From assembly GCA_017882605.1 (NCBI GenBank), contig JADGPE010000017.1, forward strand, positions 1 through 35,776: 35,776 nt of DNA, given 5' to 3'. Under the pieces are notes generated by a model. That model had not been told where the DNA came from. It saw only the letters and a program-made list of their open reading frames with translations, and did no database searches. Made by a program: the position numbers and the translations under genes. Positions 3,113-26,327 of this stretch are shown here, piece after piece (the stretch's first letter is position 1; the number at the start of each line of letters is the position of its first letter). The stretch is from Thermoleophilia bacterium. Lineage in GTDB: Bacteria > Actinomycetota > Thermoleophilia > Gaiellales > Gaiellaceae.

Positions 3113-3676
3113 ATGGGATATCCACTACGCGAGGAGCTCCCCGGGGCGTACTACCACGTCGGAACGCGCGGGAACAACCAACGTGACATCTTCACGCACG
3201 CCCGCTCCTACGAGCTGTTCCTGCTCATCTTTGGAGCCCAGGTGAAGGCGTTCGGCTGGGAGGTCGTCGCTTATTGCCTGATGAGGAACCACTACCACCT
3301 CGTCATGCGGATCTGCGAGCGCGGCCTGTCGCGGGGAATGCAGAAGCTCAACGGCGGCTACGCGCGCGCATTCAATGGTCGCGAGGGCCGGCGGGACCAC
3401 CTCTTCGGCCGACGGTTCTGGAGCCGCGAGATCGAAGACGAAGCCGACCTCCTGGTGACGTGTCGGTACGTCCATCTGAACCCGACACGTTCATTCGGCG
3501 TGCTGCCGGAACACTGGCAGTGGAGCGGGCATCGAGTCGCAGTCGGGCTGGACACGCCGCGGCCATTCCACAGCCCGGACGCGCTCTGGATGCTCCTCCA
3601 CCCCGAGCCTCGGCAAGCGATGGATTCGTACGGGTCTTTCGTCGACGAGGCGCTGTTAGCCATGTCCGGTGTCTGA
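3113..3676 (+). CDS. REP-associated tyrosine transposase (RAYT), Y1/IS200-like
   Basis: YYHVGTRGNNQRDIF, CLMRNHYHLVM (HUH motif), RYVHLNPTRS. Stop codon TGA lies in the right flanking palindrome. Confidence 0.9.
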   Translation: MGYPLREELPGAYYHVGTRGNNQRDIFTHARSYELFLLIFGAQVKAFGWEVVAYCLMRNHYHLVMRICERGLSRGMQKLNGGYARAFNGREGRRDHLFGRRFWSREIEDEADLLVTCRYVHLNPTRSFGVLPEHWQWSGHRVAVGLDTPRPFHSPDALWMLLHPEPRQAMDSYGSFVDEALLAMSGV

Positions 3677-10923: not shown

Positions 10924-11352
10924 ATGAGGCTCGCGGCGATCGTGCTCGTCCTGCTCGCGCTGACGGCCTGTGGCGGTCACAAGACGGCCTCGCCGGACGC
11001 GGTCGTCCGGGCCTGGAGCGCCGCACTCGACCGGAACGACAACGACGCTGCCGGCCGATTGTTCGCCGACGGCGCACAGGTGGTTCAGAACAACCGGATG
11101 ACCAGGCTCTCGACGCATGCCGTCGCCGTCGGCTGGAACGCGCTGCTCCCGTGTGGTGGAACGATCGTCTCGCTGGAACCGCGCGGGCCGGAACTCGTGC
11201 TGGTGGTGTTCAAGCTGAGCGAACGGCCGGGACACGCTTGCGACGCGCCCGGCCAGGAGGCCGCTGCGCTCTTCGAGGTGCAGCACGGGAAGATCGTCGT
11301 CTGGCACCAGACCGACGTGCCGACGTCGGCAACCCCGGGCGAGCTCGCCTAG
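10924..11352 (+). CDS. Lipoprotein, NTF2/SnoaL-like
   Basis: ATG at 10924: MRLAAIVLVLLALTACGG (lipobox LTAC), PDAVVRAWSAALDRNDNDAAGRLFADGA. Confidence 0.8.
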   Translation: MRLAAIVLVLLALTACGGHKTASPDAVVRAWSAALDRNDNDAAGRLFADGAQVVQNNRMTRLSTHAVAVGWNALLPCGGTIVSLEPRGPELVLVVFKLSERPGHACDAPGQEAAALFEVQHGKIVVWHQTDVPTSATPGELA

Positions 11353-12047
11353 GTCTTCGGCTCGGGCTCGAGCTTGTAGCCGACACCGAAGCGCGTCTGG
11401 ATGAACGAGTGCTGCGACGCGTTGCGGTCGATCTTCTGGCGCAACCGCCGCACGAAGACGTCGACGGTCCGGTCACGATGCGTCTCGCGCCTCCCCCAGA
11501 CCTTCTGGAGCAGCTCGTCGCGCGTGACGACCCGGCCGCGGTCGAGGGCGAGCGTGTAGAGCAGCCTGAACTCGGTCGGCGTCAGCTCGGCACTCTTGCC
11601 GTCGACGAATGCCTGCACCTCTCTCGGGTCGATGCGTAGCTCCTCGATCTCGATCGCATCGCCACGCCGCTCCTCCTGGGGCCGAACGCCACGTCGTGCC
11701 GCCGCCCCGACACGTGCGACGAGCTCTCGCATGGAAAACGGCTTCACGAGGTAGTCGTCGGCGCCGATCTCCAGCGCGTGCACGCGATCGTGCTCGGTGC
11801 CACGCGCGGAGACGACCACGATGGGCGTGCCGATTCCCTCGGCACGCGCAGTCTCGATCAACTTCCAGCCGTCGAGCTCCGGCAACATCAGGTCGAGCAC
11901 GCAGACGTCGGGGTTCTCGAAGCGGAGCCGCGCGAGCCCGAGCTCGCCGCGCCCGACCACGATCGGGTCGAATCCCGCCGCCACCAGGTGCTTGGCCATC
12001 CCGTCCGCGATCACATTGTCGTCCTCGACGATCAGGATCTTGGCCAC
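11349..12047 (-). CDS. OmpR/PhoB-family response regulator
   Basis: GTG start VAKILIVEDDNVIADGM; VCVLDLMLPELDGWKL; DDYLVKPFSMRELVARV; winged-helix LTPTEFRLLYTLALDRGRVVTRDELLQKVWG. Adjacent to pst genes (PhoP/PhoB role is inference). Confidence 0.93.
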   Translation of the reverse strand: MAKILIVEDDNVIADGMAKHLVAAGFDPIVVGRGELGLARLRFENPDVCVLDLMLPELDGWKLIETARAEGIGTPIVVVSARGTEHDRVHALEIGADDYLVKPFSMRELVARVGAAARRGVRPQEERRGDAIEIEELRIDPREVQAFVDGKSAELTPTEFRLLYTLALDRGRVVTRDELLQKVWGRRETHRDRTVDVFVRRLRQKIDRNASQHSFIQTRFGVGYKLEPEPKT

Positions 12048-12066
12048 ACCCCTACGATAGACCGGT

Positions 12067-12099
12067 GGCAGGTTCTGTCCGGGTTTCAGGATGGTGACG
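12067..12099 (-). promoter_or_regulatory. Candidate PHO-box array upstream of response regulator
   Basis: Minus strand CGTCACCATCC/TGAAACCCGGA/CAGAACCTGCC; AC at unit positions 5-6 in all three; ends 7 nt from TATCGT (12054-12059). Confidence 0.55.
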
Positions 12100-12104
12100 A
12101 TCTG

Positions 12105-12782
12105 GTGTATGACCGCAGCTTCGACGAGCTCCGCACGGGCTTCACAGCCGCGGTCTCGCACGAGCTGAGAACGCCGCTCGCCCGGATCCTCGTGCTGCTC
12201 GACTCCGCCGACCTTCCGGGCGCCGACGTCCAGGCGCTGATCGACCAGGCAAAGGCGGAAGTGGAGAACGCCGGCGCCCTGATCGACGAGATCCTGTTCC
12301 TCTCGGAGCTCGAGAGCGGCAAGGAGGTCGTCTCGCTCGGGCACACCGCGGCCCTGCCGGTGCTACGCGAGGTGGTCGACAGCCTCGACGACGCCGCCGC
12401 GCGCGCGGGCGTGACTGTCACCGTCGAGGGAGACGACTTCGTCGAAGTACCGTTGCGGCCGCGCATGCTGCGCGTCGTCGGCGAGAACCTGGCGGAGAAC
12501 GCAATTCGCTACGCCGGTCACGGCGCGCACTTCACATTCGAGGTGCACCGTGCGGGGGACTTCGCAGTGCTCACCGCCGCCGACGACGGCGTCGGCGTGT
12601 CGCCGGAGAAGCTGCCTCGCCTGTTCGAGCGCTTCTACCGCGCCGACTCGGCGCGCACTTCGCGAGGGACGGGCCTCGGACTCGCGATCGTCAAGCACGT
12701 TGTCGCGGCGGCGGGCGGCGACGTCGAGGCGGACGGCGGCCTGGGCCGCGGGCTGCGCATTCGCTGCACCTTCCCCGCCTGA
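12105..12782 (+). CDS. Sensor histidine kinase core without visible sensor or transmembrane region
   Basis: In frame with ORF 11778..12782, likely GTG start 12105. H box FTAAVSHELRTPLAR, N box GENLAENAIRYAG, DDGVGVSPE, LFERFYR, GTGLGLAIVKHVV. Confidence 0.85.
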   Translation: MYDRSFDELRTGFTAAVSHELRTPLARILVLLDSADLPGADVQALIDQAKAEVENAGALIDEILFLSELESGKEVVSLGHTAALPVLREVVDSLDDAAARAGVTVTVEGDDFVEVPLRPRMLRVVGENLAENAIRYAGHGAHFTFEVHRAGDFAVLTAADDGVGVSPEKLPRLFERFYRADSARTSRGTGLGLAIVKHVVAAAGGDVEADGGLGRGLRIRCTFPA

Positions 12783-12785
12783 CGA

Positions 12786-12811
12786 GGACGGGCGCCCTGG
12801 GGCACCCGTCC
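12786..12811. terminator. Possible bidirectional hairpin between convergent kinase and pstS genes
   Basis: GGACGGG-C-GCC-CTGG-GGC-A-CCCGTCC; no clear T tract. Confidence 0.4.
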
Positions 12812-12836
12812 TGACAGTTACAGATCCGAATTCGAC

Positions 12837-13886
12837 CTAACTGTGCACCGTCTTGAGGAGCTTCTCGGCGAGCACCAGCACCGGCTTCGGGATCGGCACG
12901 TAGCGGAGCTTCACGCCGAGCGGCTGACCCTTGGTCAGCGCCCAGAAGACAAACGTCCTGAGCGCAGACGCGTTCTGCGTCGTCTGCGGGAGGATCACGT
13001 AGGTGTAGGTCGAGATCGGGTACGCGGTCGGCGCCGACTTCGGCGGGTTCACGATGTGCACCTCGCCGGTCGTCCCGACGTTCTTGAACGCCGCGGAAGC
13101 CGCAGTGATCGACTTGATGCCGGGGGTCGTGTACTTGCCGGCAGCGTTCCGGACCGCCATCACCTGGATGTGGTTCGTCACCGCGTAGGCGATATCGGCG
13201 TAGCCGATGGCGCCCGCGGTGTTCTTGACGACACCGGCGACACCGGACGAGCCCTTGCCACCGACGCCGACCGGGAACGGCGGCTGCGTCGAGAGGCCGA
13301 TCTTCGACTTGAACGCGGGGCTGACCGAGGACAGGTAGTCGGTGATGTTGTACGAGGTCCCCGACCCATCGGAGCGGTAGACCGGCGTGATCTTCTCGCT
13401 CGGGAGCGAGATGCCCGGGTTCAGGGCCTTGATCGCGGGGTCGTCCCACGACGTGATCTGGCCCAGGTAGATCCGGGCAAGCACCGGTCCCGTGATGTGG
13501 AGCGGCGCGTGCGCGTTCGTCTGCAGGTTCACCATCACCGAAGTCCCGCCGAGCGCCCACGGGATCTCAATGCACCCCTTGCAGTTCGTGGCCTGATCCG
13601 ACGTCAGGGGGGCGTCAGAGGCACCGAAGTCGACGGTGCGGTTGGTGATCGCCTGGATCCCGCCGCCCGAGCCGATCGGCTGGTAGACGATGTTGGTGCC
13701 ATTGACGGACGGGTAGGCCGCTTGCCACTGGGACACCAGCGGCTGGACGAACGTGCTCCCTGCGCCGACGAGCTGGCCGCCCGTGTGCTTGCTCTGGCTT
13801 GCCGTGGCGCTCGCGGCCACGCAGCCGGCGAGCAGCGCCGCCGAGACGAGCAGCGAGCTGGTCCGCCTCGTAATGCTAAAGCTCAT
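12837..13886 (-). CDS. pstS: Phosphate ABC transporter substrate-binding protein
   Basis: Signal peptide, LVGAGSTFVQPLVSQWQAAYPSVNG, YQPIGSGGGIQAITNRTVDFGASDAPLT, YRSDGSGTSYNITDYLS. RBS AAGGGAG. Confidence 0.96.
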   Translation of the reverse strand: MSFSITRRTSSLLVSAALLAGCVAASATASQSKHTGGQLVGAGSTFVQPLVSQWQAAYPSVNGTNIVYQPIGSGGGIQAITNRTVDFGASDAPLTSDQATNCKGCIEIPWALGGTSVMVNLQTNAHAPLHITGPVLARIYLGQITSWDDPAIKALNPGISLPSEKITPVYRSDGSGTSYNITDYLSSVSPAFKSKIGLSTQPPFPVGVGGKGSSGVAGVVKNTAGAIGYADIAYAVTNHIQVMAVRNAAGKYTTPGIKSITAASAAFKNVGTTGEVHIVNPPKSAPTAYPISTYTYVILPQTTQNASALRTFVFWALTKGQPLGVKLRYVPIPKPVLVLAEKLLKTVHS

Positions 13887-13980
13887 CTGAGAACTTCTCC
13901 CTTCGTTAGCTTCCCGGGGGGTTTCACCTTCGGCTGTTTCCGGGGCAGTCTCGCCGGGCTGCTCGAGCGCATGGGCTTAC

Positions 13981-14013
13981 CTGCAGTGACGTTTTGGTTA
14001 CGACGTGGTAACC
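13981..14013 (-). promoter_or_regulatory. Candidate PHO-box array upstream of pstS
   Basis: Minus strand GGTTACCACGT/CGTAACCAAAA/CGTCACTGCAG, exact 11-nt phasing, invariant AC. Confidence 0.65.
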
Positions 14014-14020
14014 GGCACCG

Positions 14021-14914
14021 CTACCGCGCGCGCAGCTTCCGCTCGCGCCGTGCCAGGATGTAGCGCGCAGTCAGGCTGAGAACGAGCACGAAGATCATCA
14101 GGACGAACGCCGCCGCCCACGCCTGGTTGTTCAGGCTGGCGTCCGGCGACTCGGAGTCGAACAGGATCAGGAGCGGGACCGCCGCCATCGCGTGATGGGG
14201 ATCCGTCTCGATCTGGTTGGGCAGAAAGATCGACGTCGTGAACAGAAGCGGTGCCGTCTCGCCGGCGGCCCGGGCGACGGCGAGCGTCGCCCCGGTCATG
14301 ACCGAGCCGATCGCCGACGGCATGACGACGAAGAGCACCGTGCGCCACTTGCTGATGCCGAGGGCGTAGCTGCCGTAGCGGAGCGCGTCGGGGACGAGCC
14401 GGAGCACCTCGATCGTCGATCGCGCCACCAGCGGCAGCATCACGATGGCGAGAGCGACCGAGGCCTTCCACGCCGCGTAGCCCGAGCCGACCACGAGAAG
14501 GGCATAGGCGAAGATACCGACGACGATCGAGGGCACCCCATTCAGCACGTCGAGCGCCAGTTTCACCACGCGCGCTACCCGGTTCCCGCCGAATTCGGCG
14601 ACGTAGACCGCGGCGAGGATGCCGATCGGCAGGGCAATCGCGGTGGCGATCGCGACCATGATCGCCGTGCCGACGAGGCCGTTCGCGATGCCGCCGCCGG
14701 TCTCACCGTACGTCACCTGATTCTTCGTGAACAAGTCGAGGTTCAGCGCCTTGAGGCCGCGCAGCAGCACCGAGATGACGACGAGCGCGAGCACCCCGAT
14801 CGCGAGGAATGCGGCAAAGATGGAGGCGCCCTGCGCGACGTGATTCGTCCGCTGGCGCCGGCGGGACCGACCGGTCGACTTCAGGGAAATGGAGGCGACG
14901 CCGGAAGCCTCCAT
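14021..14914 (-). CDS. pstA: Phosphate ABC transporter permease
   Basis: Hydrophobic permease; GGGIANGLVGTAIMVAIATAIALPIGILAAVYVAEFG; VARAAGETAPLLFT. Confidence 0.95.
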   Translation of the reverse strand: MEASGVASISLKSTGRSRRRQRTNHVAQGASIFAAFLAIGVLALVVISVLLRGLKALNLDLFTKNQVTYGETGGGIANGLVGTAIMVAIATAIALPIGILAAVYVAEFGGNRVARVVKLALDVLNGVPSIVVGIFAYALLVVGSGYAAWKASVALAIVMLPLVARSTIEVLRLVPDALRYGSYALGISKWRTVLFVVMPSAIGSVMTGATLAVARAAGETAPLLFTTSIFLPNQIETDPHHAMAAVPLLILFDSESPDASLNNQAWAAAFVLMIFVLVLSLTARYILARRERKLRAR

Positions 14915-14915
14915 C

Positions 14916-15887
14916 TCAGACCCTCTGTGCGATGTCGTAGCGGCGCACGATCAACAGCGCAGCGAAGTTCACGATCAGCGAGATCGCAAGCAGGATCACG
15001 CCGAGGTAGAAGAGCGACGCGACTTGGAGATTGGACGCCGCGGCCTGATACTGCGCCGCGATCCGGCTCGCGAGAGTGTCGCCCGTCTCGAACAGGTTGG
15101 CGGTGAGATGTGCAGTCGTCCCGATCACCTGCGTGACGGCGATCGCCTCGCCGAGCGCACGGCCGGCCCCAAGCAACACCGCTGAGATCAGGCCGCCGCG
15201 CGTGTACGGCAGCATGACGCCGCGCACCATCTCCCAGCGTGTCAGCCCGAGCCCAATGGCGCCTTCCTTGATGTCCGGCGGCACCTGCAGGAACAGGTCG
15301 CGGCTGATCGCGGCCGTGATCGGCACGATCATGATCGTCAGAACGAGCACGGCGGTGAACATCGTGCTGCCCGAGATCGGCCTGGTAGCGAAGAACGGAG
15401 TCCAGCCGAGCACGTCGTTCAGCCACGGGCCGAACTCGTTGTGCACCACAGGACCGAGAACGAGGATCCCCCAGAGCCCGAGCACCACGCTGGGGATCGC
15501 CGCGAGCATCTCGACCAGCGATCCGACGACGCCGCGTACACCGCCGGGTGCGAGCTCGCTCAGGTACAGGCCGATCGCGATCGCGACGGGTGCGGCGAGC
15601 AGGACGGCAAGACCCGTGACGTAGAGCGTCGCAACCAGGAAGTCGAGGGCGCCGTACTGGTTGGTGACGGCGTTCCAGGTTTGATGCCAGATGAAGCTGA
15701 TCCCGAAAATTCGGATCGAGGGCCTGGCTTGGTCGAGCACTTCGTAGATGATCAGCGTGATCAGCGCGATCACGCCGACGGCGGCCAGCCCCGAGATCGA
15801 GCGGAGCGAAGTGTCCCCGAAGCGGTCACGCAGCCCGCGCCTCGAAGCGAGGCTGTCAGGCAGCGGGGTGGCGATCGGGTCGTCCAT
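14916..15887 (-). CDS. pstC: Phosphate ABC transporter permease
   Basis: Likely start 15887 ([13 protein letters not shown]); [55 protein letters not shown]. Confidence 0.94.
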
Positions 15888-15931
15888 GCTCCGCGCGCAA
15901 GCCTTGCAGTTTCCTAGGCCCACCAGAGCCG

Positions 15932-15964
15932 GTTCACCAGATCGACACGAGATGGTTACAACTC
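15932..15964 (+). promoter_or_regulatory. Candidate PHO-box array between divergent pstC and pstB
   Basis: GTTCACCAGAT/CGACACGAGAT/GGTTACAACTC; first unit begins with GTTCACC, the Streptomyces PHO-box core. Confidence 0.7.
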
Positions 15965-15976
15965 CTCGACCCGTCG

Positions 15977-16855
15977 ATGGCGACCATGCGCGAAACTCCC
16001 GCCGTGTCCTCCACTTCACAGAGCACGCCGTTGAACCTGTCCGCGAGCATCAAGAGCGGGGAAGGCCCGGAGGCGGCGCGCGAAGTCGTTTTCGGCGTGC
16101 GGGACGTGAGCGTCTCATATGGGCCATCGCCGGCGCTCGCCGGCGTCAATCTCGACATCTACAAGAATGTGATCACCGCGCTGATCGGTCCCTCGGGTTG
16201 CGGTAAGAGCACGTTCATCCGTTGCCTGAACCGGATGAACGACCTGGTCCCCAGCGTCAAGATCGGCGGTCGGATCCTCTACCACGGCATCGACCTCTAC
16301 GGGCGCGACGCGGATCCGGTCGAAGTCCGGCGCCGGATCGGGATGGTGTTCCAGCGGCCAAACGTGTTCCCGAAATCGATCTACGACAACATCGCGTTCG
16401 CCCCGAAGAAGCTCGGCCTGCCGGGCGACATGGACGTCCGCGTCGAGCAGGCGCTGCGTAGCGCTGCGCTCTGGGACGAGGTCAAGAGCCGGCTCAAGAA
16501 GTCCGCACTCAGCCTCTCCGGCGGTCAGCAGCAGCGCCTGTGCATCGCGCGCGCGATCGCCGTCGAGCCCGACGTGATCCTGCTCGACGAGCCCGCGTCG
16601 GCGCTCGACCCGATCTCGACGTCGGCGATCGAGGACCTGATGCACGAGCTCAAGCGCGAGTACACCCTCGTGATCGTCACCCATAACATGCAACAGGCCG
16701 CGCGCGTCGCCGAGATGACGGCGTTCTTCAGCCTCGACGTCAAGGATGACGGGTCCCGCCACGGGATCCTCGTGGAGTACGACGCGACCGAGAAGATCTT
16801 CACGAGCCCATCCGACGAGCGAACGGAGGGATATGTCACAGGTCGGTTCGGGTAG
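15977..16855 (+). CDS. pstB: Phosphate ABC transporter ATP-binding protein
   Basis: Walker [66 protein letters not shown]. Confidence 0.97.
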
Positions 16856-16859
16856 CCCG

Positions 16860-17528
16860 ATGCGCATCTCGTTCACGGAGGAGCTCGCACACCTCGAGGC
16901 CTCCCTCCAGGAAGAAGGTGACCTCGTCCTGCGGGCGCTCCGCTCGTCGCTGAACGCACTCGCGCGCGGCGACGAGGAGCTCGCCGACGAGGTGATCAGC
17001 TTCGACGACGAGGTCGACCGTCGCTACATCGCGCTCGAAGAGGGTGTCCAGTCACTGCTTGCGCGCCAGACCCCCGTCGCCGCCGACCTGCGGCTCGTGC
17101 TGGCGATCCTGCGTGTGAACCTCCACCTCGAGCGCATGGCCGACTACTGCGTGACCGTCGCCAAGCTGACGAAGTTGATGGGCGACCTCAACGTCGCCGA
17201 CGAGCGCATCGGACAGTCGATCGAGGACATGGGCCAGCGCGCCGAGCAGATGATCCGCGTCGCACTCCACTCGTTCGCGTCCCGTGACGCAGACGAGGCA
17301 CTGACGCTCGTCGAGCTCGACGAATTGATCGACCGTGCGAACCGCAACGCGACCGAGGACGTTCTCTCGCTCGGCGACTCGCCGCAAGAGCGTGAGTACG
17401 GCCTGCGGATGCTCGTCGTGTCACGCTGCGTCGAGCGGATCGGGGACCACGCCGTCGATATCGGGGAGCAGGTCGTCTACCTCGTAACGGGCGAGTTTCG
17501 GGAGTTCAGCGACGCTTCTCACCCATAG
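16860..17528 (+). CDS. phoU: Phosphate signalling complex protein PhoU
   Basis: MRISFTEELAHLEASLQEEGDLVLRALRSSLNAL...RCVERIGDHAVDIGEQVVYLVTGE. Confidence 0.95.
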   Translation: MRISFTEELAHLEASLQEEGDLVLRALRSSLNALARGDEELADEVISFDDEVDRRYIALEEGVQSLLARQTPVAADLRLVLAILRVNLHLERMADYCVTVAKLTKLMGDLNVADERIGQSIEDMGQRAEQMIRVALHSFASRDADEALTLVELDELIDRANRNATEDVLSLGDSPQEREYGLRMLVVSRCVERIGDHAVDIGEQVVYLVTGEFREFSDASHP

Positions 17529-17791
17529 GATCTCGTGGATGGCGAGCCCGCCTTTGGGGACAGTCACGAGACGTTCACACGCAGTCGTTTGCACGCCACC
17601 TCCGGCCCGTGGTTGGATGCGGTCGTGACCCTCTCGAGGCTCCACAGGCACATCGACCTGCGCATCGGTTCGGTCGAGCGTGTACAGCGTCGCCTGCGCG
17701 CCCGCCGCGGGCCGGACGCACGGCGAGCGCTGGTCACGATCGTTCGCCGCCGGCCCTAACGCCGGCCCACGGGACTGCCAACGGAGCTTCG

Positions 17792-18409
17792 TCACGCGTT
17801 CTTGACGAGGATGTTGCCGACGCGGCTCGCTGCCGTGTCACAGGCGTCGATCGCGTCCTCGAGCGCCTCGTAGATGTCCTTCCATCGGATCACGATGCCT
17901 GGATCGATGCGGTCGTCCTTGAAGAGGCTCGCCCGCGCCGCGCGGGCGATCTCGTCGGCCTCGTCTTCGATCTCCTTGATCGCCACGACCCGGTCGGCCG
18001 ACCCGCGTTTCTGCTTCAACCCGCCGAGCAGGAGCGAAAGCTCCTCGGTAGCTCGCACCAGCAGGCCGCAGAGCTCGAACGACTGCCGCGTCGGCGTCTC
18101 CACCCCATAGAGGCCGAGCAGCTCGGCGGCGTTCTCGGCCGCGTCGGCGACGTCGTCGACCTTGAACGCGAGCGTGATCAGGTCATCGCGGTCGTATGGC
18201 GTGACGAACATGCTGTTGGTCATCGAAATCAGCTCGGAGACGATGCGGTCGGCCTCGTGCTCGAGCTCCTTGACGTCGTCCTGCGACGGGCCTGACGGCC
18301 ACTGCCTGAAGCGCAGCTCAACCGCGCGGGAAACAGCGAGGACAGCCACTCCCGCCCGCTCGAGCATGACGAAGATCTCGCCGCTGCGCGGCCCGACGCC
18401 GAACTTCAT
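17792..18409 (-). CDS. DUF47 / PhoU-like Pit accessory protein (copy 1)
   Basis: ELEHEADRIVSELISMTNSMFVTPYDRDDLITLAFKVDDVADAAEN...RWKDIYEALEDAIDACDTAASRVGNILVKNA; ATGA overlap with Pit. Confidence 0.92.
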   Translation of the reverse strand: MKFGVGPRSGEIFVMLERAGVAVLAVSRAVELRFRQWPSGPSQDDVKELEHEADRIVSELISMTNSMFVTPYDRDDLITLAFKVDDVADAAENAAELLGLYGVETPTRQSFELCGLLVRATEELSLLLGGLKQKRGSADRVVAIKEIEDEADEIARAARASLFKDDRIDPGIVIRWKDIYEALEDAIDACDTAASRVGNILVKNA

Positions 18410-19392
18410 CCGAAGATCACCTTCACCGGCCACCACATGGCGGCCGCGACGGCCGCCGCCGCCGGAATCGTCAAGACCCAGGCGAACACGATGTTGCCGG
18501 CGACGCCCCAGCGCACCGCCGAGAGGCGCTTCGTGGCGCCGGATCCCATCACCGCACCGGAGACCACGTGGGTCGTCGAGAGCGGGTACCCGTAGTGCGT
18601 CGAGGCGAAGATCACCGCACCGGAGGCCGCCTGGGCCGCGAAGCCGGCCGGCGGGTCCATCTGGAACACGCGCTGTCCCAGCGTGCGCATGATCCGCCAG
18701 CCACCCACGTACGTCCCGGCTCCGATCGCAACGCCAGCCGCGATCTTTACCCAGGTCGGGATGTAGAACGTGTCGATCGAATGGTGGGAGTACAGCGCCA
18801 GCGCGATCACGCCCATCGTCTTCTGCGCGTCGTTCGCACCATGCGTGAACGCGACCCATGTACCGGTGGCGAGCTGGCCGAGCCGGAAGGAGCGGTTCGC
18901 GACACCGGGCGTCAGCCACTGGAAACCCCAGTAGATCGCGAGCAGCAAGAGGAATGCCCCGATGAAGGCGACCGTGGGCGACCAAAGCGCCGGTAGAGCC
19001 ACCTTGTGGGCGAGCCCGTGCCATTGCACGCCTTTCTCTCCCGACTGGGCGAGCGCCGCGCCCACGAGACCGCCGACGAGTGCGTGAGACGAGGAGGACG
19101 GCAGGCCCTGCCACCAGGTGAGCAGGTTCCAGACGATGGCGCCGAGCACCGCGGCCAGCACCGTGCGCGAATTGGCGAGACCGAGATCGATGATCCCCTT
19201 GCCGATCGTCGTTGCGACGGCGGTCGTCACGAACGCTCCGCCCAGATTCGCGATCGCCGCGACGAGCACCGCGAGACGGGGCGAGAGTGCGCGCGTCGAC
19301 ACCGAGGTGGCGACCGCGTTCGCCGTGTCGTGAAACCCGTTCGTGAAGTCGAAGAGCAGCGCGAAGACGATCGTGACGACGAGGAGCGTCAC
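18406..19392 (-). CDS. Inorganic phosphate transporter, Pit family
   Basis: FDFTNGFHDTANAVATSVSTRALSPR, GGLVGAALA, FTHGANDAQKTMGVIALAL, YPLSTTHVVSGAVMGSG. GTG start 19392. Confidence 0.95.
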   Translation of the reverse strand: MTLLVVTIVFALLFDFTNGFHDTANAVATSVSTRALSPRLAVLVAAIANLGGAFVTTAVATTIGKGIIDLGLANSRTVLAAVLGAIVWNLLTWWQGLPSSSSHALVGGLVGAALAQSGEKGVQWHGLAHKVALPALWSPTVAFIGAFLLLLAIYWGFQWLTPGVANRSFRLGQLATGTWVAFTHGANDAQKTMGVIALALYSHHSIDTFYIPTWVKIAAGVAIGAGTYVGGWRIMRTLGQRVFQMDPPAGFAAQAASGAVIFASTHYGYPLSTTHVVSGAVMGSGATKRLSAVRWGVAGNIVFAWVLTIPAAAAVAAAMWWPVKVIFG

Positions 19393-19394
19393 GG

Positions 19395-20012
19395 CTACCG
19401 GTTCTTGACGAGGATCGCTTCGAGGACGTCGGCGGCGTTCTCGCACGCATCGACGGCTTCCTCGAGCTGCTCGTGGATGTCCTTCCAGCGGATGATCGTC
19501 AGTGGATCGGCCCCGGAACGAAAGAGGTCCGCAATCGCCTCGCGCGACAGGCGGTCACCCTCGTCCTCGAGCTCCCGCAGAGCCGCGAGCTCGCGCTTCG
19601 AGTCCTTGAAACCCTCGAGCACGCACACGGCATCGTGCAGCCGCGACGCAGCCCGGTAGATCACCTCCGCCTGCTGCCGTGCCTTCTCGGGCACATCCCG
19701 CACTTCGTACGCATCGATGTTGTCCGCCGCCTCGTCGACGTGGTCGCAAACGTCGTCGATCACCGACGCGAGCCGGTACATGTCGTCACGGTCGAAGGGG
19801 GTCACGAAGGTGCGGTTGAGCAGGTTGATCACCTCGTGTGTGAGCCTGTCCCCCTCGTGCTCGAGCTCGCGGATGTCTCGCAACCGTCCGCGGTCGTCCG
19901 GCCAGCTCTCCAGCAGCTCGACGAGCGCCCGGGCGATGTCGCGCGCATTCGCCGACGCCTGCGTGTACAAGTGGAAGAACTCGCGCCTCTGCGGTGTCAG
20001 CCTGAGCGCCAT
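19395..20012 (-). CDS. DUF47 / PhoU-like Pit accessory protein (copy 2)
   Basis: ELEHEGDRLTHEVINLLNRTFVTPFDRDDMYRLASVIDDVCDHVDEAADNI...RWKDIHEQLEEAVDACENAADVLEAILVKNR; paralogous to copy 1. Confidence 0.93.
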   Translation of the reverse strand: MALRLTPQRREFFHLYTQASANARDIARALVELLESWPDDRGRLRDIRELEHEGDRLTHEVINLLNRTFVTPFDRDDMYRLASVIDDVCDHVDEAADNIDAYEVRDVPEKARQQAEVIYRAASRLHDAVCVLEGFKDSKRELAALRELEDEGDRLSREAIADLFRSGADPLTIIRWKDIHEQLEEAVDACENAADVLEAILVKNR

Positions 20013-20027
20013 CGCTCAAGTACCCCC

Positions 20028-20900
20028 TTACGAGACAAGAAACCAGGCCGTGCACGCGAGGCCGGCCGTGAAGCAGTAGATCGCAAACGGTGTCAGCGTG
20101 TTCGTCTCGAAGTAGCGCATCAGGAACTTCACGGCGAGGTACGCCGTCGCCGCCGAGCACAGTGCGGCGACGAGCGCCTGCCCGCGCACGCCGTCGCCGG
20201 TGGTTCCGAACAGCTCGGGCAGCTTGAGCAGGGCGGCGGCGCCGATGATCGGGGTCGCCAAGAGAAACGCGAAGCGCGCCGCATCCTTGTGCGAGAGCCC
20301 GACGAGGAGGCCGCCGCCCATCGTCGCGCCGGAGCGGGAAAACCCGGGGATCAGCGCGATCGCCTGGGTTGCCCCGACGAAGAACGCGCCGCGCCACGAG
20401 ACCGTCCGTGCGATCCGCGCGTCGTCCTCGACATCGGTGACCGGGGCCCGGCGGCGCAACAATTCGGCACCGTAGAGCAGCAGCCCGTTGAGCATGAGAA
20501 ACACCGCAGCCGAGGTCGGGGAAGCGAAGATCTTGCGCAGCGAATGCTCCAGGGTCAGGCCGAGGATCCCGGCCGGGATCGTTCCGACGACGAGCAGCCA
20601 GCCGAGCCTCGCGTCGGGGTCGTCGTCGGAGATCTCGCGGTCGCGGAGCGACCGGCCAAGCCCCTTGAAGATCCTCATCCAGTCGCGCCGGAAGAAGAGG
20701 AACAACACGATCGCGGTCGCCAGATGGGTCGCGACGAGGAAGGTGAGGAAGTACTTGTCGTTCTGGTGGATGTCCCAGCCCAGGAGCTTCGGGAGGATGA
20801 CGCTGTGCCCGAGGCTCGAGATGGGAAAGAGCTCGGAGACGCCTTGCAGCAACCCCAGCAGGATCGCCTGGGGGTACGAGATCAGGGCGGCGACGATCAC
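20028..20900 (-). CDS. uppP: Undecaprenyl-diphosphatase
   Basis: AILLGLLQGVSELFPISSLGHSVILPKLLG; IALIPGFSRSGATMGGGLLVGLSHKDAARFAFLLATPIIGAA. Confidence 0.94.
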   Translation of the reverse strand: MIVAALISYPQAILLGLLQGVSELFPISSLGHSVILPKLLGWDIHQNDKYFLTFLVATHLATAIVLFLFFRRDWMRIFKGLGRSLRDREISDDDPDARLGWLLVVGTIPAGILGLTLEHSLRKIFASPTSAAVFLMLNGLLLYGAELLRRRAPVTDVEDDARIARTVSWRGAFFVGATQAIALIPGFSRSGATMGGGLLVGLSHKDAARFAFLLATPIIGAAALLKLPELFGTTGDGVRGQALVAALCSAATAYLAVKFLMRYFETNTLTPFAIYCFTAGLACTAWFLVS

Positions 20901-21136
20901 GTGGCGGTCGTCGTGCGCTTCGGCCCCGTCCGGAACCACGCGAACGCAAGACACGCGAGGCCGACCAGGAAGGCGGCGATTCCATGCTTTGCGTGGTGGT
21001 GGCCGGAGCCGGCCTGGTGCCCGGGGAAGAAGCTGGGCAGCGACTTCGCCGGCTCGGCCCAGTAGACGATCGCGATCACGATCAGGACGATCCCGGCAAG
21101 GACGGCGAGCCCGGCGAGCAGGCGATTGTTCCGCAT
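20897..21136 (-). CDS. Small two-TM membrane protein with GSGHHHAKHG loop
   Basis: MRNNRLLAGLAVLAGIVLIVIAIVYWAEPAKSLPSFFPGHQAGSGHHHAKHGIAAFLVGLACLAFAWFR; ATGT-type overlap with uppP start; TATTCT 7 nt upstream. Confidence 0.75.
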   Translation of the reverse strand: MRNNRLLAGLAVLAGIVLIVIAIVYWAEPAKSLPSFFPGHQAGSGHHHAKHGIAAFLVGLACLAFAWFRTGPKRTTTAT

Positions 21137-21173
21137 CGGGCGTAGAATACGGATCGAACAGGCGGGCGGACTC

Positions 21174-21206
21174 GGTAACCAAATCGACACCCACCGTTCA
21201 CGATTG
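21174..21206 (+). promoter_or_regulatory. Candidate PHO-box array between ppk1 and the uppP/Pit operon
   Basis: GGTAACCAAAT/CGACACCCACC/GTTCACGATTG; aligns ungapped to the pstB array at about 21 of 30 positions. Confidence 0.7.
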
Positions 21207-21226
21207 TTCCGGAAGGATGCAGCGAC

Positions 21227-23311
21227 TTGCCCACGACCACTCACCCGCGCGCTGACGAGGACCACGAGACGCTCCTCAACCGGGAGCTGTCACAGGTCGA
21301 CCTGATGCGGCGCGTGCTCGAGCTCGCCGCCGATCCCAACGAGCCGCTGCTCGAACGGGTCAAGTTCTGCGGCATCGTCTCGTCGATCCTCGACGAGTTC
21401 TTCATGGTACGGGTCGCCGGGCTGCAGGACCAGGTCCTCTCCGGCTTGTCGGTGCGCTCGCCGGACGGCCGCACGCCACAACAGGCGCTGGCCGAGATCA
21501 GAGCCAGCGTGCTCGGGTTGACGGCGCAGCAGGCAGCCCTCTGGCGCGAGCAGCTCTGTCCGGCCCTCGCCGCCGAAGGGATCCTCATCGGCGGCGTCGA
21601 GGACGCCACGGAGGCCGAGCGGACCGAGCTGCAGGACGTCTTCTTCCGGCAGATCTTCCCGGTGCTCACCCCGCTGGCCGTCGGCCCCGGACAGCCGTTC
21701 CCGTACATCTCGGGCCTGTCGCTCAGTCTCGGGCTGCTCGTTCGCGACCCGGAGGCCGGCGAGGAGCGGTTCGCACGGGTCAAAGTGCCGGAGGGCCTCG
21801 ACCGCTTCGTTGCGATCGGCGCGCGCGGGCTCCTCGTGCCGCTCGAGTCGGTGCTGTCGCACTTTCTGCCACGCCTCTTCCCGGAGATGGAGGTGGTGCA
21901 ACGAGCACTGTTCCGCCTCACGCGAGACGGCGACACCGAGATCTCGGACGACGCGGACGACCTGCTCGAGGCGGTCGAGTCGGACCTGCGCAAGCGTCGC
22001 TTCGGAGCGGTCGTGCGCATGGAGGTTTCGAGCTCGATTTCGAGCGACATGCTGATGCGCCTCACCGAGCGGCTTGGCATCGCCTCCGACCAGGTCTACG
22101 CGATCTCGGGCTTGCTCGATCTCGCGGATGTCGCTCAGCTCTACTCGCTCGGCCGTCCCGACCTCAAGTACACGCCGTGGCTCCCCTACACACAGCGCAG
22201 GCTCGCCGTCTCGGGTGACGGCCTGTTCGAGCAGATCGCGCGACGAGACATCATCGTTCACCACCCGTACGACTCGTTCGGGTCGAGCGTCGAGGCGTTC
22301 CTCCAGGCGGCCGCTGCGGATCCGCAGGTCGTCGCACTGAAGACGACCGTGTATCGCACGAGCGACGATTCGGCCATCGCGCCGGCGCTGGTCAAGGCAT
22401 CGGAGAACGGCAAGCAGGTGGTCTGCGTGGTCGAGCTGAAAGCGCGCTTCGACGAGCGTCGCAACATCGACTGGGCGCGTGCCCTCGAACAGGCCGGAGT
22501 GCACGTCGTCTACGGCTTCCCGGACATGAAGATCCACGCCAAGACGACGCTCGTCGTCCGGCGTGAGGGCGATGAGCTACGTCGCTACGTGCACATCGGC
22601 ACCGGCAACTACCACGCAACGACGGCACGAACCTACGAGGATGTCGGCATCTTCACAGCCGATCCACAGATCGGCGAGGACATCGCCGACCTCTTCAACT
22701 TCGTCACGGGCTTCGGTCGGCCTCAGCGCTTCCGCCGCCTGCTCGTCTCGCCGTTCAATCTGCGGAGGAACCTGGTCGAGCGGATCAAGGAGGTGGCGGA
22801 CGCCGCGGCCGGCGGCAAGCACGCCCGGATCCGGATCAAGTGCAACAGCCTGACCCACCCGGAAGTGATCGAGGAGCTCTACAAGGCATCTCAGGCCGGC
22901 GTCCACATCGACTGCGTCGTTCGTGCGAACTGCAGCCTCGTGCCGGGTGTGCCCGGGCTGAGCGAGCACATCCGTGTGCGGTCGGTGCTCGGCCGCTTCC
23001 TCGAGCACAGCCGTCTCTACTGCTTCGAAGCGGACGACCGGCGCGACTATCTCCTGGGCAGCGCCGACCTGATGCCGCGCAACCTCGATCACCGCATCGA
23101 GGTCGTCATGCCCATTGAGGACAACCAGGTGCGGAACGAGCTCGAGTCGATCTTCAAGGCGCTCCTCGCGGACAACTGCCAAGCGTGGGAGCTCCAGCCG
23201 GACGGCGTGTGGAAGCGCGTCTCGCCGAAGAAGAACGAGCGTCGCCGCGCTGCTCAAGCGACGTTCATGCGCAGGCGCGAGCGAGCGCGCCGGCTCGCAC
23301 GATCGCGCTAG
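21227..23311 (+). CDS. ppk1: Polyphosphate kinase 1
   Basis: TTG start with GGAAGG upstream; LLNRELSQVDLMRRVLELA, IVHHPYDSFGSSVEAFLQAAAADPQVVALKTTVYRTSDDS, HIGTGNYHATTARTYEDVGIFT. Confidence 0.96.
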   Translation: MPTTTHPRADEDHETLLNRELSQVDLMRRVLELAADPNEPLLERVKFCGIVSSILDEFFMVRVAGLQDQVLSGLSVRSPDGRTPQQALAEIRASVLGLTAQQAALWREQLCPALAAEGILIGGVEDATEAERTELQDVFFRQIFPVLTPLAVGPGQPFPYISGLSLSLGLLVRDPEAGEERFARVKVPEGLDRFVAIGARGLLVPLESVLSHFLPRLFPEMEVVQRALFRLTRDGDTEISDDADDLLEAVESDLRKRRFGAVVRMEVSSSISSDMLMRLTERLGIASDQVYAISGLLDLADVAQLYSLGRPDLKYTPWLPYTQRRLAVSGDGLFEQIARRDIIVHHPYDSFGSSVEAFLQAAAADPQVVALKTTVYRTSDDSAIAPALVKASENGKQVVCVVELKARFDERRNIDWARALEQAGVHVVYGFPDMKIHAKTTLVVRREGDELRRYVHIGTGNYHATTARTYEDVGIFTADPQIGEDIADLFNFVTGFGRPQRFRRLLVSPFNLRRNLVERIKEVADAAAGGKHARIRIKCNSLTHPEVIEELYKASQAGVHIDCVVRANCSLVPGVPGLSEHIRVRSVLGRFLEHSRLYCFEADDRRDYLLGSADLMPRNLDHRIEVVMPIEDNQVRNELESIFKALLADNCQAWELQPDGVWKRVSPKKNERRRAAQATFMRRRERARRLARSR

Positions 23312-23347: not shown

Positions 23348-24244
23348 ATGTGGAGCCGTCACCATGAGGGACGAATGGTCGGGGTCATCGACGTCGGCTC
23401 GAACACCGTGCGCCTGGTCGTCGCCCACGGCGGACGCCAGGTGCTGTCACAGCGCGAGATGCTCCATCTCGGCGCGGACGTCGAGCTACACGGATCGATC
23501 CCGCCGGAAAAGCTCGTCACCGCGGCGCAGCTCGTCGGGTCGTACGCGGACGCGGCGCGAGCCGCCGGCGCGGTCGAACTCGCGGTTCTGATCACGAGCC
23601 CCGGACGCCAGGCGGCGAACGGGAAGGAATTGCTTCACGCGATCTCGTCGGCCGCGGGCTGCTCGACGCGCATCCTCAGCGCCGCCGAAGAGGCACACCT
23701 CGGCTTCACCGGCGCCGTTGAGGTCGCGGCTCCCCCCGCTCGCCGTCGCGTCGCCGTCGTCGACGTCGGCGGCGGCTCGGCGCAGGTCGTCGTGGGCTCC
23801 CGGCGAGCTGGGCCGGAGTGGCTGCGCTCGATCGATCTCGGCTCGCAGCGGCTGACGAGCAGGCTGCTCGCGGCCGACCCGCCGGGACCGGCCGCACTCC
23901 ACGCCGCGCGCGCCGAGGCGGCGAGTTACCTGCGCGGATTCGATCCTCCCGAGCCTCGTCTCGCCCTCGCCGTCGGCGGGAGCGCCCGCGCGCTCAAGCG
24001 AATGGTCGGCCCGAGGCTTGGAACCGAGGAGCTCGAGGAGGCGCTCGCGCTGCTCGCCGAGCTGCCGGCGGCAGACGTCGTGCAGCGCTTCGGCATCGAC
24101 GCCGACCGCGTCGACACGCTTCCTGCCGGGGCCGCGATCCTGTCCGAGCTCCAGGCGCTGCTCGGCACGCCGTTGAAGGTCGTGCGCGGCGGTGTGCGCG
24201 AGGGCGCGCTGCTCGAGCTCAGTGACCGGCGCGCGGCCGCCTAG
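23348..24244 (+). CDS. Ppx/GppA-family exopolyphosphatase
   Basis: GVIDVGSNTVRLVVAHG; AEEAHLGFTGA; VVDVGGGSAQVVVG; DTLPAGAAILSELQALLG. Confidence 0.93.
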   Translation: MWSRHHEGRMVGVIDVGSNTVRLVVAHGGRQVLSQREMLHLGADVELHGSIPPEKLVTAAQLVGSYADAARAAGAVELAVLITSPGRQAANGKELLHAISSAAGCSTRILSAAEEAHLGFTGAVEVAAPPARRRVAVVDVGGGSAQVVVGSRRAGPEWLRSIDLGSQRLTSRLLAADPPGPAALHAARAEAASYLRGFDPPEPRLALAVGGSARALKRMVGPRLGTEELEEALALLAELPAADVVQRFGIDADRVDTLPAGAAILSELQALLGTPLKVVRGGVREGALLELSDRRAAA

Positions 24245-24656
24245 CCCGCTCGCGGATCTCGAGCAGCTCCAGGCTCGGACCGAGAACGAAGACGGCGCCC
24301 TTCTTCCACTTCGGCGCCGCCGGCACAACCGCATCGAGACCTCCATGACCGCAGACGACCACGTTCTGCCCGGCGAGCGAGCGGACAAGCGCCGTCCCGT
24401 CCTCCGCCTGCCGGTCCTCGCCCAGCTCCTCCCGAACATCGATTTCGAGGCGGCGTGCTCGCGCAAGCGGGCCGACGGTCTCCAAGCAACGCCGGTAAGG
24501 GCTCGTCAAGATTTCTTCGATCGTGAACGGAGCGAGCCGGTCCACCAGCTCCTTGGCCTCACGGCGGCCGGGCTTGTCGAGCGGGCGATACCGGTCGTCT
24601 TCCTCCCACGCCGCCCGGTCGCCGGCCGACGCATGGCGCACCAGCAGGAGGGGCAT
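24219..24656 (-). CDS. SixA-like histidine phosphatase
   Basis: MPLLLVRHASAGDRAAWEEDDRYRPLDKPGRREAKELVDRLA, ILTSPYRRCLETVGPLA, VVVCGHGGLDAVV. Confidence 0.88.
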   Translation of the reverse strand: MPLLLVRHASAGDRAAWEEDDRYRPLDKPGRREAKELVDRLAPFTIEEILTSPYRRCLETVGPLARARRLEIDVREELGEDRQAEDGTALVRSLAGQNVVVCGHGGLDAVVPAAPKWKKGAVFVLGPSLELLEIRERARRPRAGH

Positions 24657-26071
24657 CAGCGGAGCGCTCTCTGCCCGCGCTCGAGCACGGTCGCCAGCGC
24701 CGCCGGATAGAGCCGCCGCTGCTCGGCCCGCCTCCGCCGCTCGCCCTCGATCAGCCGTCCGGCGGCGAGAGCCGTGCTCGCCTGCGCGAGCTCGCGCAGC
24801 CTCGCCTCGGCAACGACCGCATCCTGATGCTCGCCGACCACGTCCTGAAGCTCCTTGAGCGCGCCGAGGTAGCGCTGTAGCTGCTTGCCCGCACGGCCGA
24901 CCGCCATGAGCTCTGCACCGTAGCGTGCGTGCTTTGCCGTGATCCGCAAGGCGTGCAGGTCGGCATCGGCGGGAATGGGTGCGAGCTGCTTCGCCGCGCG
25001 ACGGAGCTCACGGAACTCGGCTGCTGCGATCTCGCGAGCGTCGTGATCCGAGGTCACCTCCTGCAACGCCGCGACGGCGGACGCGAACGCATCGAGCAGC
25101 TCCAGGTACCGCTCCGAACCGAGCGCATCGAGCAACTCGTCGCGCAACAGCTCTCGCTCGTCTTCCAGCAGCCCGACGAGCGTCTCGCCGCCGGGGCGAT
25201 CGTGATCGAGGTTTCGCACCTCGCCCCGGATCCGCTCGATCAGCACGTCGTGGTCGCGAACGGGCCCGAGCAGCCTGGCGAGCCACTTCAGCTCGCCCTC
25301 GAGGTATGCGAGGCGGTCGCCGAGCACCGGCTTCGTCGCTCGGATGAGCGCACGACTGCGACGTGTGGCGACCCGGTAGCGGTGAACATCCTCGGGCTCG
25401 TCGCCGAGCCGGACACCAGGGTCGTGGCGCAGGAGCTCGCGCAGCTGATCGGCCAACAACACGCGCAGAAGCTCGACCGCGGTCGCATCCTTCGGCGCCT
25501 GCAACCGGGGCGGCGGCGGCAGGACGCGCAGCAACTTCGGCGTGCCGTCGGAAGTCTTCGCCCCTGCCTTTCGTAACCTGCGTCCGAGACGTTCAAGATC
25601 GCCGTCGTCGCCGTCGACGAGCTCGATCTCGATTTCGGCAAACTCACCAGTCGACCGTCCTGCGTCGAGCACCGCCACCGAGTCGAGCGTGACGTCCGCG
25701 ATCGCGCGGCCCTCGTCGGCGACGCGCATGCCCGCGCGGCGTGTCCGCAATGTCGCCACGGGCTCCAGCCGTCCGTGACGAAGATGAGCAACGAGGAGCT
25801 CGGCGAGCGCCGCCGGCGGACCGGCCGGACCGCCCGGAGCTTCGAGCTCGGCGCGTGCGTTGCCGCCACGAGGCAGCTTGAGCTGCCATTGCGAGAGCTC
25901 GTTCTCGACGCGACGGCGCAACGTGATCCCCGCGCCGGTGAGCGAGCGGTCAGGGGTGTCGTAGTAGGTCGATGTGAAGAGGCGCGGCTCGATCGGCTCG
26001 CCCTGCAGGTCGGGGAGGGTGAATCCCGCCTCGGGATCGAGCTTCAGCTCCCGTTCGATGAACGTGCGCAT
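24656..26071 (-). CDS. CYTH-CHAD domain protein
   Basis: CYTH ERELKLDPEAGFTLPDL, STYYDTPDRSLTGAGITLRRR; CHAD DQLRELLRHDPGVRLGDEPEDVHRYRVATRRSRALIRATKPVLG, HALRITAKHARYGAELM. Confidence 0.92.
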   Translation of the reverse strand: MRTFIERELKLDPEAGFTLPDLQGEPIEPRLFTSTYYDTPDRSLTGAGITLRRRVENELSQWQLKLPRGGNARAELEAPGGPAGPPAALAELLVAHLRHGRLEPVATLRTRRAGMRVADEGRAIADVTLDSVAVLDAGRSTGEFAEIEIELVDGDDGDLERLGRRLRKAGAKTSDGTPKLLRVLPPPPRLQAPKDATAVELLRVLLADQLRELLRHDPGVRLGDEPEDVHRYRVATRRSRALIRATKPVLGDRLAYLEGELKWLARLLGPVRDHDVLIERIRGEVRNLDHDRPGGETLVGLLEDERELLRDELLDALGSERYLELLDAFASAVAALQEVTSDHDAREIAAAEFRELRRAAKQLAPIPADADLHALRITAKHARYGAELMAVGRAGKQLQRYLGALKELQDVVGEHQDAVVAEARLRELAQASTALAAGRLIEGERRRRAEQRRLYPAALATVLERGQRALR

Positions 26072-26327
26072 CCAACGCAAAGCGTAGGCCGTCGCTCCGT
26101 CATATGTGTGACAGGCGGGCCCGGAGCTCCAACTCTCCCCCACCACCCCGGGCCCGTCCTGCCGCCTTTTCCCCAGGCAACCCGCCTCGGGCCCACCACT
26201 GCAGGGCGCGATTCGTGTCGTCATCGCGAACATAGGCACGACCGGCTGCCGCAGGGGTTACAGACCGGCATCGATCGGGGGACGAAGCGGCCGCCACCCC
26301 TTCCCAAAGCAGCTGAGGGCCCCGACC

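What the first reader, a model, noticed from the sequence alone, without database searches (positions are those of the whole stretch)
11349..23311. Four phased 11-bp triple-repeat operators define a candidate Pho regulon across the phosphate/polyphosphate island
Seen: four intergenic 33-bp arrays of three 11-bp units: 15932-15964 (pstC/pstB), 21174-21206 (ppk1 and uppP/Pit operon), 13981-14013 minus (pstS), 12067-12099 minus (response regulator). In all 12 units positions 5-6 are AC; units resemble (G/C)(G/T)TNAC(C/N). The pstB and ppk1 arrays align ungapped over 30 bp with about 21 identities, including ATCGACAC. Established: Streptomyces PhoP binds PHO boxes of 11-bp direct repeats with a GTTCACC-like core. 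Inference: the local OmpR-family regulator binds these and autoregulates, tying phosphate uptake to polyphosphate synthesis.
Basis: partly seen in the sequence, partly recalled or inferred. Interest (0 to 1): 0.82.

Follow-up and report, generated by a model that had tools for sequence, protein, structure and literature searches.

The report
Phosphate-starvation operator network in uncultured actinobacterium
Four short triple-repeat DNA sites in this uncultured actinobacterium are very probably the docking sites for its phosphate-starvation regulator; they are nearly the only such sites in the genome, recur before the same phosphate genes across a whole bacterial family, and extend a switch known from Streptomyces to a lineage where we found no published Pho regulon.

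Summary
All four arrays are present letter for letter and all 12 units carry AC at positions 5-6. A matrix trained only on relatives' arrays (own genome and its near-twin left out) returns exactly these four sites as the top four of about 71,000 positions in the window. A whole-genome search of the own assembly gives five hits at E<=10, four of them these arrays.

In held-out genomes of the same family, 50 of 54 hits lie directly upstream of pstS, the response regulator (RR), pstB or DUF47-PiT. A reversed-sequence control finds none. Three-in-a-row hits occur almost only at 11-bp spacing.

Corrections: the RR operator has four units (12067-12110); the best three are shifted by one unit. A divergent, apparently soluble histidine kinase shares it, its GTG start codon inside repeat 1. 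The ppk1 array points at ppk1, not at the uppP/PiT side.

New: a -10-like hexamer lies at fixed phases (about 6, 17-18 or 27-28 nt) after the third repeat, as expected for an activator. A fifth genomic site serves a PHP-like/GlpD/ABC-transporter locus.

This is a PHO box/Pho regulon of the Streptomyces PhoP type: a new member of a known kind. Binding and phosphate response are untested.

The parts
12067..12110 (-). RR/HK operator: four 11-bp units ATACACCAGAT CGTCACCATCC TGAAACCCGGA CAGAACCTGCC; strongest three = 12078-12110
   Evidence: relatives-trained matrix 24.8 bits for 12078-12110, 15.6 for 12067-12099; invariant positions in a five-genome alignment; conserved before the RR in the family
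12054..12059 (-). -10-like hexamer TATCGT of the RR promoter, 18 nt after unit 3, just before the RR start codon
   Evidence: TCTATCGTAG invariant in five genus genomes; offsets 18 or 28 in RR loci
11349..12047 (-). OmpR/PhoB-family response regulator, 232 aa, presumed binder of the arrays
   Evidence: Pfam Response_reg + Trans_reg_C; PhoB is the top NCBIfam hit but below its cut-off; orthologs 90-97% identical in genus, mostly 76-84% in family
12105..12782 (+). Divergent histidine kinase (HisKA + HATPase_c, no transmembrane or sensor domain found); GTG start codon inside operator unit 1
   Evidence: Pfam; no strongly hydrophobic segment; start codon in unit 1 of the array in about 31 of 36 RR-HK pairs
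13981..14013 (-). pstS operator GGTTACCACGT CGTAACCAAAA CGTCACTGCAG; degenerate unit 4 at 13970-13980
   Evidence: 22.7 bits; own-genome hit; conserved upstream of pstS orthologs
13947..13952 (-). -10-like hexamer GAGACT, 28 nt after unit 3 of the pstS operator
   Evidence: sequence; offset 28 in 66 of 70 pstS loci, 55 of 59 after removing near-duplicates
12837..13886 (-). pstS, phosphate-binding protein
   Evidence: TIGR00975 above cut-off
14021..14914 (-). pstA, phosphate permease
   Evidence: TIGR00974 above cut-off
14916..15887 (-). pstC, phosphate permease (start at ATG 15887 inferred from sequence)
   Evidence: TIGR02138 above cut-off
15932..15964 (+). pstB operator GTTCACCAGAT CGACACGAGAT GGTTACAACTC, oriented toward pstB-phoU; unit 4 CTCGACCCGTC at 15965-15975
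   Evidence: 31.3 bits, top of the window; own-genome hit E 0.033; conserved in six or more genus genomes
15992..15997 (+). -10-like hexamer GAAACT, 27 nt after unit 3; suggests the true pstB start is GTG 16004 and leaderless (inference)
   Evidence: same position with GTG shortly downstream in relatives
16004..16855 (+). pstB (proposed start GTG 16004; longer ORFs from 15977 or 15986)
   Evidence: TIGR00972 above cut-off; translation
16860..17528 (+). phoU
   Evidence: TIGR02135 above cut-off
21174..21206 (+). ppk1 operator GGTAACCAAAT CGACACCCACC GTTCACGATTG, three units, oriented toward ppk1
   Evidence: 21.9 bits; own-genome hit E 0.11; aligned footprint in genus
21213..21218 (+). -10-like hexamer AAGGAT, 6 nt after unit 3 (GATGCT or GATCAT at the same place in four relatives)
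21227..23311 (+). ppk1, polyphosphate kinase 1 (TTG start)
   Evidence: TIGR03705 above cut-off

Best explanation
The four arrays are PHO boxes: tandem 11-bp half-sites bound head to tail by the phosphorylated form of the OmpR/PhoB-type regulator encoded at 11349-12047, a functional counterpart of Streptomyces PhoP and mycobacterial RegX3. Under phosphate starvation the regulator fills the three strong units (and a weaker fourth near the -35 position at pstS, pstB and RR), then recruits RNA polymerase to a poor -10 element at a fixed helical phase. It thereby activates pstS, pstB-phoU, ppk1 and its own gene. Shown by sequence: arrays, phasing, conservation, near-exclusive location before phosphate genes, fixed -10 phase, co-occurrence with the regulator. 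Inferred: identity of the binder, activation, and the phosphate signal. The kinase gene starts inside the same operator on the other strand; whether the bound regulator also turns the kinase down is open.
For: Window arrays exact. Relatives-trained matrix puts exactly these four on top. Own genome: five hits at E<=10, four are these. Three-unit hits almost only at 11-bp spacing in held-out upstream regions: pstS 18/27, RR 17/27, ppk 10/24, against 0-2 for other spacings and under 1% of shuffles. In 103 family genomes 75 have a hit at E<=0.02. Of 54 held-out hits, 50 lie same-strand within 350 bp of pstS, RR, pstB or DUF47-PiT; two of the other four precede a phosphodiesterase-like and a metallophosphoesterase-like secreted protein. 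Reversed control model: 0 hits in 41 genomes against about 100. -10-like NANNNT at offset 28 in 55 of 59 non-redundant pstS loci, and at 28 or 18 in 31 of 35 RR loci; maximum in 2000 shuffles 8-9. RR ortholog and strong arrays co-occur, p = 2.5e-4. The Streptomyces PHO box is built of 11-nt direct repeats with core GTTCACC (PMC4415409; PMC6283541).
Against: No binding, expression or phosphate-response data. The RR falls below the PhoB equivalog cut-off, and its nearest solved homologs include BaeR and MtrA as well as RegX3, so its identity rests on linkage. Many compared sites are orthologous, so counts are not independent. Own-genome E-values are modest (0.02-0.35). The MAG is 82.6% complete, so regulon members may be missing. 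The fifth genomic site has its -10-like hexamer out of phase (offset 22).
Confidence: 0.88

Rival explanations
1. The arrays are real operators, but of another OmpR-family regulator encoded elsewhere in the genome (a MtrA-, GlnR- or PhoP-like paralog), with the local regulator acting on other sites.
For: About 20 further OmpR-type matches in the own genome. Cross-regulation of phosphate genes by other OmpR-type regulators is known in Streptomyces (own knowledge).
Against: Strong arrays occur in 24 of 33 genomes with the local RR ortholog and in 0 of 8 without it. The RR's own promoter carries one of the best arrays throughout the family, next to its kinase. The RR-HK pair sits in the pst island in many genomes.
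Confidence: 0.08
2. Chance or composition artefact: short GC-rich motifs with AC in phase, picked by eye.
Against: Everything; the reversed-sequence model with identical composition gives no hit in 41 genomes.
Confidence: 0.01
3. Same operators and regulator, but at ppk1 the array works as a repressor or roadblock because it nearly touches the start codon, so polyphosphate synthesis is turned off rather than on under starvation.
For: The ppk1 array ends 20 nt before the start codon. Boxes placed over or downstream of the promoter are described as roadblock sites in S. coelicolor (PMC7244524).
Against: A -10-like hexamer lies 6 nt after unit 3 in the window and four relatives with the start codon a few nt further, an activator geometry with a leaderless transcript. 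The better-looking TAGAAT upstream of the array reads, on the other strand, as a -10 (TATTCT) 7 nt before the start of the divergent small gene.
Confidence: 0.2

Closest known systems
Streptomyces PhoP PHO box (11-nt direct repeat units, core GTTCACC)
   Same: 11-bp direct repeats, core TTCACC with near-invariant AC, strong core units followed by a degenerate unit, autoregulation, pst and ppk among targets (PMC4415409, PMC6283541, PMC7244524).
   Different: Here three strong units plus a weak fourth recur at nearly every site with a fixed -10 phase. A Streptomyces pst contig scanned with this matrix gave no three-unit hit. The kinase is divergent from the regulator and appears soluble, whereas Streptomyces PhoR is a membrane kinase (PMC6283541).
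Mycobacterial SenX3-RegX3
   Same: OmpR-type regulator with a phosphate kinase; RegX3 is among the nearest solved structures (2oqr).
   Different: Divergent gene pair; no membrane or PAS part in the window's kinase; orthology not established.
E. coli PhoB / pho box
   Same: 11-nt tandem half-sites and activation by binding near -35 (PMC4415409; PMC3348028). PhoB is the top NCBIfam hit of the RR.
   Different: Different core (CTGTCAT in E. coli). Here three units, with -10 phases about one helical turn apart.

Membership tests
PHO box (actinobacterial PhoP type) | Direct repeats of 11-nt units with seven better conserved and four less conserved positions | tested here: met
   11-bp spacing only; information concentrated in the core positions of each unit
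PHO box (actinobacterial PhoP type) | Core GTTCACC | tested here: met
   Family consensus nTTCACCA / CGTCACCA / nGTCACC; window units diverge (GGTAACC, CGACACC) but keep AC
PHO box (actinobacterial PhoP type) | Located before phosphate-starvation genes | tested here: met
   50 of 54 held-out hits; four of five own-genome hits
PHO box (actinobacterial PhoP type) | Bound by the phosphorylated cognate regulator | not testable with these tools
   needs EMSA or footprint
PhoR-PhoP / SenX3-RegX3 two-component system | OmpR/PhoB-family regulator with cognate kinase encoded next to it | tested here: met
   (divergent rather than co-directional)
PhoR-PhoP / SenX3-RegX3 two-component system | Membrane-bound sensor kinase | tested here: not met
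   No strongly hydrophobic segment in the window's kinase or in three relatives; only HisKA + HATPase_c found
PhoR-PhoP / SenX3-RegX3 two-component system | Regulator orthologous to PhoP, RegX3 or PhoB | tested here: inconclusive
   PhoB top but below cut-off; BaeR, RegX3 and MtrA nearest in PDB
Pho regulon | Genes induced at low phosphate | not testable with these tools
   no expression data

The most novel reading that the evidence does not exclude
The operator between the regulator and its kinase is dual-use. Read on the kinase strand, repeat 1 supplies the kinase GTG start codon and repeat 2 a GGTGA ribosome-binding-like sequence 7 nt before it. The regulator binding its own operator would then switch its gene on while blocking the kinase's initiation region, a feedback built into an 11-bp repeat and kept across the family.
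Probability: 0.3. Interest if true: 0.65.

Novelty: new member of a known kind. Interest (0 to 1): 0.48.

Why it matters
It reconstructs a phosphate-starvation regulon in an uncultured actinobacterial family from DNA alone, with a sharp enough operator that new members can be read off genomes: phosphonate uptake, secreted phosphoesterases, and a PHP-like/GlpD/ABC-transporter locus. The fixed phase between repeats and -10 gives a simple promoter grammar that can be tested in a model actinobacterium. The kinase start codon inside the operator is a specific, testable feedback idea.

Tried and rejected
GTTCACC heptamer search in the own genome: far too common to be useful, 402 sites.

Direct regulation of uppP/DUF47/PiT by the 21174 array: not supported by orientation or -10 position; the first divergent gene is a 79-aa small membrane protein. 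In G005, G106 and G092, however, arrays do lie directly next to DUF47-PiT (in G005 the array reads in the opposite orientation).

Palindromic, bidirectional -10 between RR and kinase: rejected as evidence, because any NANNNT overlaps a reverse NANNNT by construction.

Weak array-like stretches at 4325-4357 (inside the ETF-QO gene) and 26252-26284 (before the CYTH-CHAD gene): well below the four real sites.

Extending the strict three-unit matrix to named Streptomyces, Nocardiopsis and Glycomyces pst contigs: no hits. Solirubrobacterales contigs show weaker two- to four-unit boxes, in L010 and L015 before genes for secreted-looking proteins.

Weak hits in other families of the order (L249-L257) mostly lie near unrelated genes and are treated as chance, except a secreted protein in L257 that resembles the L319 one by eye.

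Full report
WHAT IS THERE. The window is one whole 35.8-kb contig of a 2.1-Mb, 82.6%-complete assembly. It holds an OmpR-type response regulator (RR), a divergent histidine kinase (HK), pstS-pstA-pstC on the minus strand, pstB-phoU on the plus strand, PiT and DUF47, uppP, ppk1, a Ppx/GppA-family gene and a CYTH-CHAD gene. The nearest named PstB relatives are mostly Solirubrobacterales and other actinobacterial MAGs; the closest contig carries a Burkholderiales label that looks wrong. All four arrays are present exactly as described.

IS IT MORE THAN CHANCE. A matrix from the 12 window units was scanned in 350 bp upstream of the pstB, pstS, ppk1 and RR orthologs of 60 relatives. Three-in-a-row hits appear at 11-bp spacing and hardly at any other spacing from 8 to 15. 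A matrix retrained on 50 relatives' arrays, with the own genome and its near-twin G008 left out, puts exactly the four window sites on top of about 71,000 positions.

WHOLE GENOMES. A sequence-only model of 43 relatives' arrays finds five sites at E<=10 in the own genome, four of them in this window. In 103 family genomes, 75 have hits at E<=0.02. The reversed model, with identical composition and information, finds none in 41 genomes at E<=0.3. Of 54 hits in genomes never used for training, 50 lie on the same strand within 350 bp upstream of pstS (33), RR (13), pstB (2) or DUF47-PiT (2). Two of the remaining four precede secreted proteins with weak phosphodiesterase/sulfatase or metallophosphoesterase matches. 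Genomes without the RR ortholog lack strong arrays: 24 of 33 with it, 0 of 8 without it, p = 2.5e-4. Missing contigs in incomplete assemblies can contribute to that association.

PROMOTER ANATOMY. Downstream of the third unit a -10-like NANNNT sits at offset 28 in 66 of 70 pstS loci and at 28 or 18 in most RR loci. After removing near-duplicates this is 55 of 59, and 31 of 35; shuffles reach at most 8-9. At ppk1 it is at offset 6 in the window and four relatives (for G002 the string carried three extra array bases, and the corrected offset is 6 from the alignment). These offsets differ by about one helical turn. A degenerate fourth unit (nnnACCC at RR, nnnAGCCCA at pstS) falls at the -35 position of the 28-nt class. 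RR -10s (TATCGT, GATAAT) are better than pstS -10s (GACACT type), consistent with basal regulator expression and activator-dependent pstS (inference). At RR, pstB and ppk1 the start codon follows the -10 by only a few nucleotides, which suggests leaderless transcripts (inference).

THE KINASE. A histidine kinase lies divergent from the RR. In the window it consists of HisKA and HATPase_c only; relatives of the family carry a longer, PAS-like-looking N-terminus (by eye; no Pfam match), and none examined has a strongly hydrophobic segment. In about 31 of 36 RR-HK pairs the kinase frame starts at the codon complementary to positions 4-6 (CAC) of unit 1, GTG in 30 of them (12105 in the window). 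In several, including the window, it is the only start codon before the phospho-acceptor motif. GGTGA of unit 2 sits 7 nt upstream, a plausible ribosome-binding site. The operator may therefore also be the kinase's initiation region; this is proposed, not shown.

REGULON MEMBERS. The fifth own-genome site (G000:C14:30837-30866) lies between a PHP-like gene (sub-threshold Pfam match), followed by a GlpD-like dehydrogenase, and a divergent ABC-transporter substrate-binding protein. The same divergent pair in G006 has two arrays, one per direction. In relatives arrays also lie before phnD-type phosphonate uptake with a divergent type I phosphodiesterase (G010), a PF04185 phosphoesterase (G012), a PHP-like gene and ppk1 (G014), and DUF47-PiT (G106, G092; opposite orientation in G005).

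MECHANISM AND STANDING. The best reading is a Pho regulon under the local regulator, activated at low phosphate (confidence 0.88). It works like Streptomyces PhoP on PHO boxes: 11-nt units, GTTCACC core, extension to weaker units, placement just upstream of -35 for activation (PMC4415409; PMC6283541; PMC7244524). Two-component family membership is open: the regulator falls below the PhoB cut-off and the membrane-kinase criterion is not met. ppk induction by the Pho system is known (PMC4415409, citing Ghorbel 2006), so linking uptake to polyphosphate is not new in itself. A full-text search for Pho regulon with Thermoleophilia returned three papers on other topics, and one with Solirubrobacter returned none.

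LIMITS. All evidence is sequence-based. Sites are largely orthologous within one family, so counts are not independent, although PstS is only about 50% identical over the same range. Several assemblies are incomplete. Gene calls in the relatives used a simple codon-position rule plus Pfam.

Noticed in passing
window 20900-21136 (-): A 79-aa small membrane protein with an HHH stretch, conserved in the genus, precedes uppP; its ATG follows a TATTCT -10-like element by 7 nt, suggesting a leaderless transcript.
   Followed up: partly
window 12105-12782 (+): The kinase start codon lies inside the RR operator's first repeat, and the window's kinase lacks the longer N-terminus present in other genera of the family.
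   Followed up: yes
G000:C14:30837-30866 (L243:2837-2869): Fifth PHO-box-like site of the genome, between a PHP-like gene + GlpD-like dehydrogenase and a divergent ABC transporter substrate-binding protein (PF13343); its -10-like hexamer is out of phase with the other sites.
   Followed up: partly
L247 (G010:C171), L260 17756-17788 (G012): Arrays before phosphonate-binding protein/phosphodiesterase genes and before a PF04185 phosphoesterase: likely regulon members in relatives.
   Followed up: partly
window 23348-24244 (+) and 24656-26239 (-): Ppx/GppA-family and CYTH-CHAD genes continue the polyphosphate island; only a weak 8-bit array-like stretch at 26252-26284 lies before the latter.
   Followed up: no
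L009 (JAICUZ010000007.1): A contig titled Burkholderiales carries the same actinobacterial pst/RR island and has the same length as G001:C348; the taxonomic label is probably wrong.
   Followed up: no
window 3113-3676 (+): IS200-like Y1 transposase gene.
   Followed up: no
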